Source: Croceivirga sp.
GTDB lineage: Bacteria > Bacteroidota > Bacteroidia > Flavobacteriales > Flavobacteriaceae
Assembly: GCA_028284935.1 (NCBI GenBank)
Contig: JANQQQ010000012.1
Location: 310,001 to 374,000 of the forward strand
Length of the DNA: 64,000 bases
Direction of reading: 5' to 3'
Position numbers and translations under genes: made by a program. Shown piece after piece: positions 46,040 to 51,941 of the stretch (position 1 is its first letter; each line of letters begins with the position of its first letter). A model generated the notes under the pieces. That model saw only the letters and a program-made list of their open reading frames with translations. It was not told the DNA's origin and did not search any database.

Positions 46040-46906
46040 TCATTCTCCAAGACGACTTGAGATTTGAGAAGTTTTCCTTCTTCTTTCGTAATATAACGTA
46101 AGACAAATGATTAAGATTATTTGAATTAATACAGAAAAAATGGAACCTTCAAAACCAAAATCCCCTCCGTTGATAAGGTTTTTGTCAAGGGTCTGAAATT
46201 CAATCAGAGAATAGGAATCCTGACCGCTAACATTATAGCCAAATAGGGATTGAAAAAAATTCCAACTAAAATGAAGGGAGATTGGAAACCATAAATTTTT
46301 GTTGAAAAGGTAGGGTATTCCCAAAAGCAATCCTGCCAAGAAAAGATTGACAAGTCCAATTAGATTAATACTGGGATTAAAACCATGCATTATTGAAAAG
46401 CAGATTGCTGAAATGATTAGTGCAAGGTATGGACTAAAAGACAAGGTCAAGTTTCGCAGAACGTAACCTCGAAACAGAGTTTCCTCTGTAAAGGCGATAA
46501 GCGCAAATAAAATGATCGAAAGGAGGATTTTTGAACCTGAAAAGTTTATCCCATCAATTTGTATATGTCCATATTCCAGAGTAATCAGAAGTCCGAATGA
46601 CAAAGCAATAAAACCCATGAAGAACCCAATAAAAGCTGAATAATAAATATTTTGGTTTCGAAATCCCAATTCGATAAATGGTCTTTCATCGACAAAATTC
46701 ATGAACAACAAGATGACGGAGAGGGTGCCAATCGAACCGAAAAAAGCTAATACAACAGATTGTAAAACTGAGGGGGAAGGTGGCAAATCATTCTCGATTC
46801 CCAAGATGAAATGTCCAATGTATTGGAATATTCCAACAAAGAAAAAATACGGAAGAACGAATAAAACAAGACGTTTCCAGCCTTTATTGCTTAACACATC
46901 TTCCAT
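46040..46906 (-). CDS. CPBP-family intramembrane protease (candidate immunity/processing protein 1)
   Basis: The 288-residue protein has about eight membrane helices and the three CPBP/Abi motifs: EETLFR (E141, E142, R146), FSIMH (F170, H174) and HFSWN (H212, N216). Family members cleave prenylated or signal peptides in the membrane, and in Gram-positive bacteriocin loci they confer self-immunity. It lies directly downstream of the double-glycine peptide genes on the same strand, separated by a hairpin terminator, so it is probably expressed by read-through. A second CPBP protein lies on the other side of the peptides. Confidence 0.88.
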   Translation of the reverse strand: MEDVLSNKGWKRLVLFVLPYFFFVGIFQYIGHFILGIENDLPPSPSVLQSVVLAFFGSIGTLSVILLFMNFVDERPFIELGFRNQNIYYSAFIGFFMGFIALSFGLLITLEYGHIQIDGINFSGSKILLSIILFALIAFTEETLFRGYVLRNLTLSFSPYLALIISAICFSIMHGFNPSINLIGLVNLFLAGLLLGIPYLFNKNLWFPISLHFSWNFFQSLFGYNVSGQDSYSLIEFQTLDKNLINGGDFGFEGSIFSVLIQIILIICLTLYYERRRKTSQISSRLGE

Positions 46907-46937: not shown

Positions 46938-46965
46938 AAAAAAGGGTGCTTGAGCACCCTTTTTT
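46938..46965. terminator. Strong bidirectional hairpin terminator after the peptide genes
   Basis: AAAAAAGGGTGC (46938-46949), loop TTGA, then GCACCCTTTTTT (46954-46965). With an A-run on one side and a T-run on the other it can stop transcription on either strand. On the minus strand it follows the two peptide genes (52 bp after the second stop) and lies only 32 bp before the CPBP start. Confidence 0.85.
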
Positions 46966-47016: not shown

Positions 47017-47184
47017 CTATTTCATTTCGACAGCCATTTCTACTGTGTTGACAATGATTCCAAGTGCAAAACCAATAGCAAAACCTACCGCTTCACCAAC
47101 AGCTGCTCCAGCTTCCCTAGGTCCTCCCCCATTAATTTCTAGGTATTCCTCAAAGGTCAAATCCTTAATTCGTAATGTTTCCAT
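47017..47184 (-). CDS. Double-glycine leader peptide with glycine zipper (peptide A)
   Basis: A 55-codon gene: residues 1-20 are a leader (L9, T10, E13, I17, N18, G19, G20) that fits the L-x3-E-x3-I-x-G-G pattern of C39-processed peptides, ending in GGG. The predicted 35-residue core (from about residue 21) starts GPREAG and has Gly at 26, 30, 34, 38 and 42, an unbroken G-x3-G series in a hydrophobic helix, then IIVNTVEMAVEMK. It has four Glu and one Arg and one Lys, net about -2. It follows peptide B by 28 bp. It is missing from automatic ORF lists because it is short. Confidence 0.85.
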   Translation of the reverse strand: METLRIKDLTFEEYLEINGGGPREAGAAVGEAVGFAIGFALGIIVNTVEMAVEMK

Positions 47185-47212: not shown

Positions 47213-47383
47213 CTACTTGACGGGTCTGGCTGCATCATAACCTGATTGAATAGCACTTCCAACAGTACTAAAAAAGCCTATGCCAAATTGAACAAAATCT
47301 GCTTGAAAAGCTCCCCAATTCATTCCACCATTGATATCTATTGATTCTCCGATGGATAAATCAACTAAATTTATTTTTTCCAT
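47213..47383 (-). CDS. Double-glycine leader peptide (peptide B)
   Basis: A 56-codon gene: leader residues 1-20 (MEKINLVDLS..., L9, S10, E13, I17, N18, G19, G20) fit the same consensus as peptide A and are the same length. The 36-residue core starts MNWGAFQADF, has hydrophobic FVQFGIGFFSTVGSAIQSG with small-residue spacing (S39/S43, A44/G48), and ends GYDAARPVK. Net charge is about 0. It is the first gene after a 137-bp region with nested palindromes. The pairing of two such genes in tandem is typical of two-peptide (class IIb-like) bacteriocins. Confidence 0.85.
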   Translation of the reverse strand: MEKINLVDLSIGESIDINGGMNWGAFQADFVQFGIGFFSTVGSAIQSGYDAARPVK

Positions 47384-47520
47384 TTTATGAAATTTTAATT
47401 AAACACTCTATTATACAATCAAAACCAGAAATTTCTGTGCGCGCTGTTTTGATTACATAGTAAAGATCATGATTATGACTCTCATAAAATGAGAGTTGTC
47501 AAATTTTGTAGGTGAAAAAA
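47384..47520. promoter_or_regulatory. Regulatory region before the peptide genes with three inverted repeats
   Basis: ACTCTCAT-AAA-ATGAGAGT (47478-47496) is a perfect 8-bp inverted repeat. AATCAAAAC (47417-47425) is mirrored by GTTTTGATT (47446-47454), and the palindrome CAGAAATTTCTG (47426-47437) lies directly inside it. On the minus strand TATAAT occurs about 30 bp before peptide B. No exact TAnnTTTG box was found. The region is the natural control region for the peptide genes and may bind the nearby HTH protein. Confidence 0.5.
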
Positions 47521-48252
47521 TTATACAATCTCCCGTGTGGCAATTAGCAAGGCCAATACAGACAAGTTATTAATCATATGCATAATGCTACCAAATGTAA
47601 ATCCATGTTTGAGTCTTGCAAAACCAAAAATTAAGGCACTAAAAAAATGTGGTAGAACAACCAGTATTGCAATCAAAAACGTAGAATTATACGTTACTAT
47701 ATGATAATTATTAAGATGTAGCAAGGCAAAAAGAACCCCTGATGAATAAAATATTATTGCAAAGTTGTTACTCCAAAATTTGAGAATATTTTTTGATTTA
47801 TTGACCGCAAGTCTATAAACCAGAAGTCCTAATAAAATTGAAACTAAAAGCCTAATTATACAATTTGAATTAATTTGAAAGTAAAAAAGACTTTCTATCC
47901 CCAGAAATTTTGTTAGCGAAAAATAAGTAATTGAAAATGAAGCAACACCAATATTGGTAGCTCTGGGATTTAAAGCTAATCTGAAGAGCGATTCTTCAAA
48001 TATTGGAATTAAAATCGATCCATATACCAGAAGCCTAAATGGGTGCCACTGTTCTAAGACTTCGTAAACAGCACGGTTTTCTACTGAAAAAAACGAATGG
48101 ATTATTGTCGCCAAAATCAGTGACCCAATCAAATTTAAGGCAAAAAGCCAAAAAAAGCTGGTGACTGTTTCACGAAAACTTTTTTTCTCCCGAATGTCCC
48201 AACCAGGAGACTTAATAAACAGTAAGAGGTTTTGTATTAGAGTTTTCAACAA
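47521..48252 (-). CDS. CPBP-family intramembrane protease (candidate immunity/processing protein 2)
   Basis: The 243-residue multi-pass membrane protein has CPBP motifs EESLFR (E86, E87, R91), FALLH (F175, H179) and HMINN (H225, N229). It is only distantly like the first CPBP protein (46040-46906). Codon use is A+T-rich. It follows the HTH gene by 13 bp and precedes the peptide genes, so it is likely part of the export operon. The active-site residues are intact, so it may also process something. Confidence 0.85.
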   Translation of the reverse strand: MLKTLIQNLLLFIKSPGWDIREKKSFRETVTSFFWLFALNLIGSLILATIIHSFFSVENRAVYEVLEQWHPFRLLVYGSILIPIFEESLFRLALNPRATNIGVASFSITYFSLTKFLGIESLFYFQINSNCIIRLLVSILLGLLVYRLAVNKSKNILKFWSNNFAIIFYSSGVLFALLHLNNYHIVTYNSTFLIAILVVLPHFFSALIFGFARLKHGFTFGSIMHMINNLSVLALLIATREIV

Positions 48253-48265
48253 AATCTTCGACTAT

Positions 48266-48577
48266 TCAAAACCCAGTTAAGGTTGTTAAGTTGCCAAAAC
48301 AATGTCCACCGGATAGGTTCTTGCTAGTTTCATCGTCAATTTCTTCAACAAAGAAACCACATTTAAACTTTGTTTTCACTGAATAAGCATAACTACCGCA
48401 AGACCAGTCATAGTATACAGGTGCTTTCAATTCCTTCATGGTTTCAATCATTCGAAAGACTGTCGCTTCTGAGACTTCCAGTTTGTCAGCCAATTTTTTA
48501 GGCCTTCCAGTAGCCTTTAAACGTATCAATTGGTCCACACGTTCCAATAATGCAATTTGTTTTGTTAGTTGTCTCAT
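48266..48577 (-). CDS. Small HTH regulator of the peptide cluster
   Basis: The 103-residue protein has an N-terminal winged helix-turn-helix (about 8-65; LIRLKATGRPKKLADKLEVSEATVFRMIETMKEL, then VYYDWSCGSYAY). Its C-terminus is ETSKNLSGGHCFGNLTTLTGF, with a Gly-Gly at 90-91 that resembles a processing site of the exporter. It is encoded between the ABC exporter and CPBP genes. It probably controls the cluster. Whether the GG is functional is not known. Confidence 0.78.
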   Translation of the reverse strand: MRQLTKQIALLERVDQLIRLKATGRPKKLADKLEVSEATVFRMIETMKELKAPVYYDWSCGSYAYSVKTKFKCGFFVEEIDDETSKNLSGGHCFGNLTTLTGF

Positions 48578-48594: not shown

Positions 48595-50772
48595 TTAACT
48601 CGCTGATTTTAGTTTAAATGTGATCCGTGGTAACTGTTGCCGCCATAGTTTATAATAAGCGCCTTTCTCTGCATACAACGACTCATGGGAACCTTGTTCC
48701 ATGACCTTGCCCTTTTCCAATACGACAATGGTATTGGCACTCATCACCGTGCTCAAGCGGTGGGCAATAACGATAATGGTCTTGTTCTGCTCCCGAAACC
48801 GATTGACTGTTTTTTGCACAAAGGTTTCCGAACCACTATCCAAGGATGAGGTGGCCTCATCCAACACCAAAATCTCGGGCTTTTTATAAAAAGCCCGAGC
48901 AATGGCAATACGTTGCTTTTGGCCCCCTGATAGGGCGGCACCATTCTCTCCGAGATAGGTACCAAACCCATTGGGCAGGCCTTCGATGAACTCTAAAATG
49001 CCAATTTGAGTGCAGATTTCAATAATGAATTCCATATCAGGCTCCAACTCGCCAACGGCGATGTTTTCAACGACATTACCAGCAAATAGATCGATTTTTT
49101 GGGGAACCACGGCTACCAATTGGCGTAGGCTTTCATTGTCCAGATAGTTAAGGTTAGTGTTTCCGATACTTATACTCCCCTTGTTTATGGGATAGATATT
49201 CTGGAGCAATGAAACCAAAGTTGATTTACCCGATCCACTTTCACCTACGAAAGCCGTGATTTCCCCTTTTTTTATTCGAAGGTTAAAGTCTTTAAATACC
49301 TCAACCCGTGTACCGTAGCTAAAACCGACGTTTTCAAAAACTATGTCCCCTATTTTGTCTTTTGTCAATGTTATTTTTTCACCTTGTTCTTCCCGTTCCA
49401 AATCCAAAATCTCAAAAAGTCGGTCGGCAGCAATCAAAGCATTTTGAATTTCCTTGTTTGCCCCAATCAAACTCACCAAAGGTCCTGTGAAATAGCCTAC
49501 AATCGCATAAAATGAAAGCAATTCCCCAGGGGTAATTTCTTGGTCTATGACAAAGCCAGAGCCTACCCACAAAAGGATAATCACAAAAACCTGAGATATG
49601 GTATTTGACGAGGTGCTGGAAAAAATCGAGTTTAGTGCCGATTTGTATCCCGTATTCAATAATTTAATGAACCTGGTCTCCGTTTTTATATTGGCAAATG
49701 CTTCAAGCCCAAACCTTTTAATCGTTCCCACCGCCTGTAACGATTCTACCAACTGGCTCTCCAAATCCGCAGCATCTTCCATAACCTTGCGTTCTACTTT
49801 TTTATTCCATCGGTTGACCATTATATAAATCACCACATATATGGGGATAATGATTGTCATAATCAAGGCCAACTTCCAGTAATAAGTGAACATCAATGCA
49901 AAAGAGAACATCACAATCAAAATATTGACGACCAAAGAAAGGGCTACCCCATTAATAAAACTGCGTATTTTGACGGCATCCCCTATTCTGGAAATGACTT
50001 CTCCTACCCGCATGGTATCGAAAAAACGCTGGGGAAGTTTTAAAAGATGTTTATAATACCCCAATATCAATTGGGCATCAATCTGTTGGCCGGTTTTTGT
50101 CAAAAAAACATCTTTGAAAGCACCTACAAGAACCTTTACCCCTAAAAGGATGATCATGATGATGCTCAATAGGTTTAGGAGCTTGGCGCTACCATCCACT
50201 AAGACGTAGTCGGTTATTTTTTGAATGTAAATGGAGGTTGAAAACCCTAATAATGTATAGAAAACCGCTCCAATAAAAGCTTGTATCAGTACCGTTTTAT
50301 GGGGTTGTAACAAGAACCAAAAACGTCTAAGATTGGATACTTTCTCATTGCCTTCTTTAAAGTCTTGATTGGGCACCAAAAGAACGAGTACGCCTGTCCA
50401 TTCTTTTTTAAAGACCTCGTGACTTCGTTTTTCCAGTTTCCCCTTACCTGGATCCATGATAAGAACATGGTTTTTAGTGATACCGTAAATGACCACATAA
50501 TGATGCAGCCTTTCCTTTACAATAACATGGGCGATTGCTGGCTTGGGTATCTTAAACAAACTTTCAAAGTCGCCACGGACTCCTTTGCCATCAAAGCCCA
50601 ATTTTTCAGCCGCTTTTATCAATCCAAATACATTGGTACCTTTTTTGTCGGTTCCTGCATATTGCCGGATACGGGCAATAGGAAAATGAAGTTTGTAATG
50701 GGCAGAAATTGAAGCGAGACAAGCGGCTCCACAATCGGTAATATCATGTTGTTTGATTGTTTTCTTAGCCAT
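48595..50772 (-). CDS. Peptidase C39-containing ABC exporter
   Basis: The protein (725 residues with ATG at 50772; an upstream GTG gives two more) has an N-terminal C39 peptidase (about 1-140; catalytic Cys14 in DCGAACL, His91 in HHYVVIYG, Asp107 in DPGKG), six membrane helices (about 160-440) and an ABC ATPase with Walker A GESGSGKST near residue 515 and signature LSGGQKQR near 617. It cleaves double-glycine leaders and exports the mature peptide. It is 2-4 bp downstream of the HlyD adaptor gene. The nearest substrates are peptides A and B. Confidence 0.95.
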   Translation of the reverse strand: MAKKTIKQHDITDCGAACLASISAHYKLHFPIARIRQYAGTDKKGTNVFGLIKAAEKLGFDGKGVRGDFESLFKIPKPAIAHVIVKERLHHYVVIYGITKNHVLIMDPGKGKLEKRSHEVFKKEWTGVLVLLVPNQDFKEGNEKVSNLRRFWFLLQPHKTVLIQAFIGAVFYTLLGFSTSIYIQKITDYVLVDGSAKLLNLLSIIMIILLGVKVLVGAFKDVFLTKTGQQIDAQLILGYYKHLLKLPQRFFDTMRVGEVISRIGDAVKIRSFINGVALSLVVNILIVMFSFALMFTYYWKLALIMTIIIPIYVVIYIMVNRWNKKVERKVMEDAADLESQLVESLQAVGTIKRFGLEAFANIKTETRFIKLLNTGYKSALNSIFSSTSSNTISQVFVIILLWVGSGFVIDQEITPGELLSFYAIVGYFTGPLVSLIGANKEIQNALIAADRLFEILDLEREEQGEKITLTKDKIGDIVFENVGFSYGTRVEVFKDFNLRIKKGEITAFVGESGSGKSTLVSLLQNIYPINKGSISIGNTNLNYLDNESLRQLVAVVPQKIDLFAGNVVENIAVGELEPDMEFIIEICTQIGILEFIEGLPNGFGTYLGENGAALSGGQKQRIAIARAFYKKPEILVLDEATSSLDSGSETFVQKTVNRFREQNKTIIVIAHRLSTVMSANTIVVLEKGKVMEQGSHESLYAEKGAYYKLWRQQLPRITFKLKSAS

Positions 50773-50774
50773 AA

Positions 50775-51941
50775 TCACTCATTTTGTGAAATAATACCTT
50801 TATGACCAGGATTCAACCAATCGTCCATCTTATCGTACAATAATTGGTAAGCCGTCCGTTCCGTAAGATGGAACCGGGCGTTGATGGTCATGCCCTTTCC
50901 CAAATTGCCGGCATGCCCATTTTTTAGATACAGTGTTTTATTTGGTATGGAGGTTTGAACCCGATAAAAAGGTTGACCATCCATAAATTCAACATCATTG
51001 GAAATTGATGCTATTTTTCCGTATGCAAATCCCCATTGGTTATAATTAAAGGCATCTATCTGTAGCTTTACTTCCTTTTTTTGATCAATTAGGGCAATAT
51101 CCTTTGGGGAAATGTAGCATTCAGCGATAAGCTCATCATCAGGTGTAATTTCACCCAACACCTTTCCAGCCGTAATAAATCCCCCAACCTGAAGGCCTTC
51201 TTTGATTATGAGCCAACCGTCCATGGGGGCTTTAATTACATAGCCCGATTTTGTCCCCAACGCTTGTCTAGAACTGTTTTTTAATTCCTCCAAGTGGGTA
51301 TTCCTCTCGGTTAAATCGGCCTGCCAGGAGTTGATGCTTTGCTTTTTAAACTGATACAGGGCGTTCTCCGCCAGATGGTATTCCAATTTGATGTTATCAA
51401 ACTCTACCTTGGCGATTACCCCTTTTGAAAAGAGTTTTTCATTTCGATGGAAGTCTTCTTTGAGTTTCTTGATTTTAGTATGGTGCTCAGCTAAAACTGC
51501 ATGGTAACGTACCAACTCCTTCTGATAAGTTGCCGTTCTAATATCTTCAAAAACTGGCTGTTTACTGGAGATCAATAGGTTGAGATCCTCTGTCTCACGA
51601 ATCAATTTTTCAATCTTTCTTTGGTTAAGGTCCAACTGTTCATCAATTCCTACAGTCTCCAAGATTAGTAAGGTATCCCCCTCAAGGACCTTTTGTCCAT
51701 TGTTAAGATGTAGGTAGCCAATTTTCCCAGAGTTGATATTTACTAGTGGCAGTCGCTCGGTATTGGACTTAATAATACCCCTTGCAGCAGTATAAATGGG
51801 TATTGATATAATGTGCATACTTGCCAAACCCAGTCCAAGCACTATCAAAATGGATGCATAGATCAACTTACTTCGTACCGTGTTCTTTGGAATGAAGTAT
51901 TGGGTAGTGAATTCCAATATTTCTTTAGGAAAGATTTTCAT
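50775..51941 (-). CDS. HlyD-family membrane-fusion adaptor
   Basis: The 388-residue protein has one N-terminal membrane helix (about 27-48), a lipoyl/barrel-sandwich half (NSGKIGYLHLNNGQKVLEGDTLLILE), a long coiled coil (about 105-215) and a second beta domain (YVIKAPMDGWLIIKEGLQVGG). With the C39 ABC exporter it should span the periplasm and dock with a TolC-like outer-membrane channel encoded elsewhere. It is the first gene of the cluster; the region upstream is divergent from an XRE regulator. Confidence 0.93.
   Translation of the reverse strand: MKIFPKEILEFTTQYFIPKNTVRSKLIYASILIVLGLGLASMHIISIPIYTAARGIIKSNTERLPLVNINSGKIGYLHLNNGQKVLEGDTLLILETVGIDEQLDLNQRKIEKLIRETEDLNLLISSKQPVFEDIRTATYQKELVRYHAVLAEHHTKIKKLKEDFHRNEKLFSKGVIAKVEFDNIKLEYHLAENALYQFKKQSINSWQADLTERNTHLEELKNSSRQALGTKSGYVIKAPMDGWLIIKEGLQVGGFITAGKVLGEITPDDELIAECYISPKDIALIDQKKEVKLQIDAFNYNQWGFAYGKIASISNDVEFMDGQPFYRVQTSIPNKTLYLKNGHAGNLGKGMTINARFHLTERTAYQLLYDKMDDWLNPGHKGIISQNE

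What the first reader, a model, noticed from the sequence alone, without database searches (positions are those of the whole stretch)
47017..47184. Peptide A core is an uninterrupted glycine zipper with net negative charge
Gly occurs at residues 26, 30, 34, 38 and 42, four consecutive G-x3-G steps, in a hydrophobic helix. Such zippers drive helix-helix packing in membrane pores, and class IIb peptides use GxxxG pairs. Four Glu and only two basic residues make the core acidic, whereas most class II bacteriocins are cationic. The target or mode of action may thus differ.
Basis: partly seen in the sequence, partly recalled or inferred. Interest (0 to 1): 0.75.

Follow-up and report, generated by a model that had tools for sequence, protein, structure and literature searches.

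The report
Glycine-zipper peptide of a flavobacterial bacteriocin pair
The small protein carries a real, conserved row of evenly spaced glycines and is probably one half of a secreted two-peptide antibacterial toxin of a flavobacterium, which makes it a new member of a known kind of bacteriocin and not a new mechanism.

Summary
Peptide A (55 aa, 47017-47184, minus strand) has Gly at 26, 30, 34, 38 and 42, and its core after the double-glycine site has four Glu and two basic residues. The zipper exceeds chance: 89 of 300,000 shuffles of the core give five in a row. In the closest orthologue pair (Croceivirga MAG) all five Gly persist, three with synonymous codon changes, while only 3 of 12 residues between them persist. 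More distant relatives keep three or four. In 49 cores linked to C39 exporters in the family, only the i,i+4 Gly spacing is strongly enriched (59 seen, 28 expected). Acidity is not conserved in A (core charges -2, 0, +1, -4), although the four compared pairs are each net negative and the survey median is -1.

The locus encodes a C39 peptidase-ABC exporter, HlyD adaptor, winged-helix regulator, two CPBP proteins and peptides B and A. Best reading: a class IIb-like two-peptide bacteriocin in which A is the membrane-spanning zipper helix. GxxxG motifs define class IIb, and extended zippers are known from Caulobacter Cdz. It is a new member of a known kind.

The unusual element is elsewhere: the cassette's regulator ends in a leader-like GG site plus a short tail, a possible exporter-processed regulator.

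The parts
47017..47184 (-). Peptide A precursor, 55 aa: 20-aa GG leader + 35-aa core with zipper G26/G30/G34/G38/G42
   Evidence: orthologue in G008 keeps all five Gly; AF2 helix 22-54
47213..47383 (-). Peptide B precursor, 56 aa: GG leader + 36-aa core, no GxxxG but GxxxG-like pairs (G24/A28, A44/G48)
   Evidence: 55% identity to B' of G008; AF2 helix 23-52
46938..46965 (.). Terminator-like 13-bp inverted repeat between A and CPBP1 (AAAAAAGGGTGCT CA AGCACCCTTTTTT)
46040..46906 (-). CPBP1, Rce1-like/Abi intramembrane protease homologue with EETLFR, FSIMH, HFSWN motifs; candidate immunity or processing protein
47521..48252 (-). CPBP2, Rce1-like/Abi homologue with EESLFR, FALLH, HMINN motifs; homologue of the CPBP gene beside A' in G008; candidate immunity protein
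48266..48577 (-). Winged-helix (HTH_11-like) regulator ending in a leader-like GG site: EEIDDETSKNLSGG|HCFGNLTTLTGF
48595..50778 (-). C39 peptidase-ABC exporter (PCAT), TIGR01193 above its cut-off; expected to cleave GG leaders and export the cores
50775..51941 (-). HlyD-type periplasmic adaptor of the exporter
47478..47496 (.). Operator-like palindrome ACTCTCAT-TTT-ATGAGAGT upstream of B; matching palindrome in G185 and G358, near-matches in G008 and G377
47417..47454 (-). Conserved inverted repeat AATCAAAAC(AGCGCGCACAGAAATTTCTG)GTTTTGATT upstream of B
   Evidence: no Rfam match here

Best explanation
A and B are the two precursors of a class IIb-like, unmodified two-peptide bacteriocin. The neighbouring C39-ABC exporter removes the leader after INGG and, with HlyD and an unlinked TolC-like channel, secretes both cores. 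Outside, A becomes a long hydrophobic helix whose Gly stripe packs against B (or other copies of A), giving a membrane-spanning dimer or oligomer that permeabilises related bacteria. One or both CPBP proteins protect the producer or process the peptides. Shown: ORFs, leaders, exporter type, pair conservation, Gly conservation, predicted helices. Inferred: cleavage, secretion, pairing of A with B, membrane target, killing, immunity role.
For: GG leaders beside a C39-ABC exporter that passes TIGR01193, with HlyD. The same pair, order and CPBP gene in G008 next to the same porX-like gene. Zipper Gly 5/5 kept against 3/12 between (Fisher p 0.009), with synonymous changes at three Gly codons, so the ORF is probably translated and selected. 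i,i+4 Gly enrichment across 49 exporter-linked cores, also after reduction to 36. Relatives at homologous loci pass NCBI's class IIb lactobin A/cerein 7B model. AF2 helices for both. Abi/CPBP immunity precedents SkkI, PlnI, PlnL (PMC8538875). G002 keeps an intact CPBP beside a decayed A-like gene and has no C39 match at the threshold used, as expected of a leftover immunity gene.
Against: No activity data. A and B themselves pass no curated bacteriocin model. B lacks a strict GxxxG. Some CPBP proteins act in processing and not immunity (SilX, PMC9298176). Exported GG peptides can also be signals. The G002 case is a single example. The homologous loci carry one to four peptides, so a strict two-peptide unit is not universal in this group.
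Confidence: 0.72

Rival explanations
1. A Cdz-like contact-dependent toxin: A (with B) aggregates on the producer's surface through its zipper and kills on contact instead of diffusing.
For: GG leader, type I/C39 exporter, two small peptides, extended GxxxGxxxG, Gram-negative host, as in Cdz (PMC5380434).
Against: Published Cdz-like criteria ask for 60-151 residues and a zipper not interrupted by charged residues; A has 55 residues and E31 inside the zipper. B has no zipper. Acidic residues would oppose aggregation (inference).
Confidence: 0.12
2. The peptides are exported signals (pheromones) or act in another cell-cell role, and the HTH protein is the output.
For: A regulator gene lies in the cassette; GG-leader peptides in Gram-positives include pheromones; CPBP protease SilX may act in pheromone maturation.
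Against: 35-aa hydrophobic helical cores with zippers are unlike short pheromones; no histidine kinase in the cassette; linked peptides number one to four per locus and have very divergent cores, as expected for toxins.
Confidence: 0.1
3. A and B are two independent single-peptide bacteriocins sharing one exporter, not a pair.
For: Peptide number varies from one to four across homologous loci; the B-type partners of G185 and G358 are unlike B of the window; two CPBP genes could serve one peptide each.
Against: In window and G008 both A and B are conserved together, 28 nt apart in the window, in the same order, B 55% identical.
Confidence: 0.2

Closest known systems
Class IIb two-peptide bacteriocins (plantaricin EF/JK/S, lactococcin G); NCBIfam TIGR03949 lactobin A/cerein 7B
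   Same: GG leader, C39-ABC exporter, two adjacent short precursors, helical cores with GxxxG or GxxxG-like motifs, Abi/CPBP gene nearby; relatives in G358, G326 and G013 pass TIGR03949
   Different: Gram-negative host with HlyD; four consecutive GxxxG steps; net acidic core; A and B pass no curated model; no activity shown
Cdz (CdzC/CdzD) of Caulobacter crescentus
   Same: Gram-negative, two small GG peptides, type I exporter, extended glycine zipper
   Different: A is 55 aa (Cdz proteins 84-86), has Glu in the zipper, B has none, CPBP genes in place of a CdzI-type gene
Class II microcins (MccV and relatives)
   Same: GG leader and type I secretion in Gram-negatives (general knowledge; PMC9746304 abstract)
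   Different: validated members come mostly from Escherichia coli (PMC9746304 abstract) and act as single peptides (general knowledge); sequence comparison not run here

Membership tests
Class IIb two-peptide bacteriocin | Double-glycine leader with a C39-ABC exporter nearby | tested here: met
   INGG in both precursors, TIGR01193 545 bits against cut-off 524
Class IIb two-peptide bacteriocin | Two adjacent, co-conserved precursor genes | tested here: met
   A'-B' in the same order in G008
Class IIb two-peptide bacteriocin | GxxxG or GxxxG-like motif in each peptide | tested here: met
   A: four GxxxG steps; B: only GxxxG-like pairs
Class IIb two-peptide bacteriocin | Helical cores | tested here: met
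   single-sequence AF2 predictions only
Class IIb two-peptide bacteriocin | Activity needs both peptides | not testable with these tools
   needs synthetic peptides
NCBIfam TIGR03949 (lactobin A/cerein 7B) | Score above curated cut-off 21.5 bits | tested here: not met
   A and B give no hit; relatives in G358, G326, G013 pass
Pfam PF10439 Bacteriocin_IIc | Score above gathering cut-off 27.1 | tested here: not met
   no hit for A or B; best relative 25.2 bits
Cdz-like system | 60-151 residues, zipper not interrupted by proline or charge | tested here: not met
   A is 55 aa with E31 in the zipper; criteria from PMC5380434
Cdz-like system | Contact-dependent killing, surface aggregates | not testable with these tools
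   needs experiment

The most novel reading that the evidence does not exclude
The cassette's winged-helix regulator is itself a substrate or docking partner of the peptide exporter: it ends in a leader-like GG site followed by a short tail (12 aa in the window's clade), so the C39 domain could cleave off or bind the tail, tying bacteriocin transcription to exporter occupancy or releasing the tail as a signal.
Probability: 0.12. Interest if true: 0.7.

Novelty: new member of a known kind. Interest (0 to 1): 0.36.

Why it matters
It gives an unannotated, testable two-peptide system from a flavobacterium in which a five-Gly stripe is under visible selection, and shows that i,i+4 Gly spacing is a general property of exporter-linked peptides in this family (Flavobacteriaceae, judged from the Croceivirga relative) while positive charge is not. 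That argues that helix packing, not cationic attraction, is the shared requirement. Class II bacteriocins in Bacteroidota are already predicted to be common (PMC12648078), so the concept is not new.

Tried and rejected
Single-sequence scan of genome contigs with A found nothing, and A1 was too diverse for that tool; B+B' found only the Croceivirga orthologue. Chance ORF rejected: orthologue with synonymous Gly codon changes. Acidic charge as a defining trait rejected: not conserved in the orthologue. RNA-structure reading of the conserved upstream repeat not supported: no compensatory pairs among five sequences, no Rfam match there. PDB profile search of A: best hit plantaricin K, 2keg, E 0.9, not significant. 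Romo1 (E 0.043) and lactococcin G-alpha (E 0.12) hits to A are below cut-off.

Full report
Observation. Peptide A lies at 47017-47184 on the minus strand and reads METLRIKDLTFEEYLEINGG|GPREAGAAVGEAVGFAIGFALGIIVNTVEMAVEMK. Gly 26, 30, 34, 38, 42 and the four-Glu/two-basic core are as stated. Shuffling the core reaches a run of five i,i+4 Gly in 89 of 300,000 cases, and the matching DNA pattern occurs once in the window.

Gene context. On the minus strand: HlyD 50775-51941, C39-ABC exporter 48595-50778 (TIGR01193 above cut-off), winged-helix protein 48266-48577, CPBP2 47521-48252, B 47213-47383, A 47017-47184, a terminator-like repeat 46938-46965, CPBP1 46040-46906. Both CPBP proteins keep EExxxR, FxxxH and HxxxN. 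Among the named cassette proteins there is no recognised peptide-modifying enzyme.

Relatives. Its A' core is GPRDWGEDVGHAVGYGAGAVFGLFMNTVKLATKLLA: all five Gly are kept, three with synonymous codon changes, against 3 of 12 intervening residues (Fisher p 0.009). G185 keeps four Gly, G358 three, and a decayed copy with two TAG codons in G002 four, beside an intact CPBP gene and in a genome with no C39 match at E 1e-20. The cassette sits beside the same response-regulator/PglZ gene (porX-like, identification from memory) in window, G008, G185, G358 and G377.

Survey. In 49 GG-peptide cores taken from C39-exporter loci of the same bacterial family, G-x3-G pairs number 59 against 28 expected, with 0 of 2000 shuffles reaching it; spacings 2, 3, 5, 6 and 7 are not enriched and spacing 8 only mildly. 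After reduction at 40% identity it is 40 against 19 for 36 cores, and 33 against 18 without the A family. Core charge has median -1, with 26 negative, 10 zero, 13 positive. The core list was picked by hand from the candidates, so it is not an exhaustive census. Charges of the four compared pairs A+B are -2, -2, -3, -7; A alone is -2, 0, +1, -4.

Structure. AF2 on single sequences gives one helix for the core of A (22-54) and one for B (23-52). The best 19-residue hydropathy of A is 2.07, compatible with a membrane span. No complex could be modelled here.

Mechanism. The most likely reading is a class IIb-like two-peptide bacteriocin: leader removal and export by the C39-ABC/HlyD machine, helix formation at the target membrane, packing of A through its Gly stripe with B or itself, permeabilisation; CPBP proteins as immunity or processing factors. 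GxxxG or GxxxG-like motifs occur in all characterised class IIb peptides (PMC8538875, PMC6382864), and extended zippers occur in Cdz (PMC5380434). A fails two published Cdz-like criteria (length, charge in zipper).

Regulator. The winged-helix protein ends EEIDDETSKNLSGG|HCFGNLTTLTGF. A position matrix made only from peptide leaders places C-terminal sites of this regulator family at ranks 2-10, 12, 13, 15 and 16 among 569 GG sites in 509 ORFs of 85 aa or more. GG is present in 18 of 22 exporter-linked homologues and 5 of 17 without exporter genes within 1.5 kb (hand tally; Fisher p 0.0025, phylogeny not corrected). Because some unlinked copies also end in FGGSYL, the GG may be an ancestral structural turn. 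This is why the exporter-processed-regulator reading gets a low probability.

Verdict. The finding is real and conserved, with the zipper supported and the charge argument not. It is a new member of a known kind.

Noticed in passing
48266-48577 (-): Winged-helix regulator of the cassette ends in a leader-like double-glycine site plus a 12-aa tail; homologues in exporter-linked loci share it (18/22), unlinked ones less (5/17).
   Followed up: partly
47417-47496: Conserved stretch upstream of B in five genomes: palindrome ACTCTCA-N5-TGAGAGT and repeat AATCAAAACAGCGCGC...GTTTTGATT; operator-like, no covariation, no Rfam match.
   Followed up: partly
L014:8040-9012 (G002): Decayed A-like gene with two TAG codons next to an intact CPBP gene, shortly downstream of a tRNA-like sequence (by eye), not at the porX-like site.
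   Followed up: partly
L094:11908-13039 (G306): Four paralogous GG peptides, two with GLLGGLLGG ends and repeated GVV/GTV units, upstream of a C39 exporter gene.
   Followed up: no
L080:12442-16757 (G371): Array of KTQ-type GG peptides near a C39 exporter, including two identical 46-aa copies; a different peptide kind from A/B.
   Followed up: no
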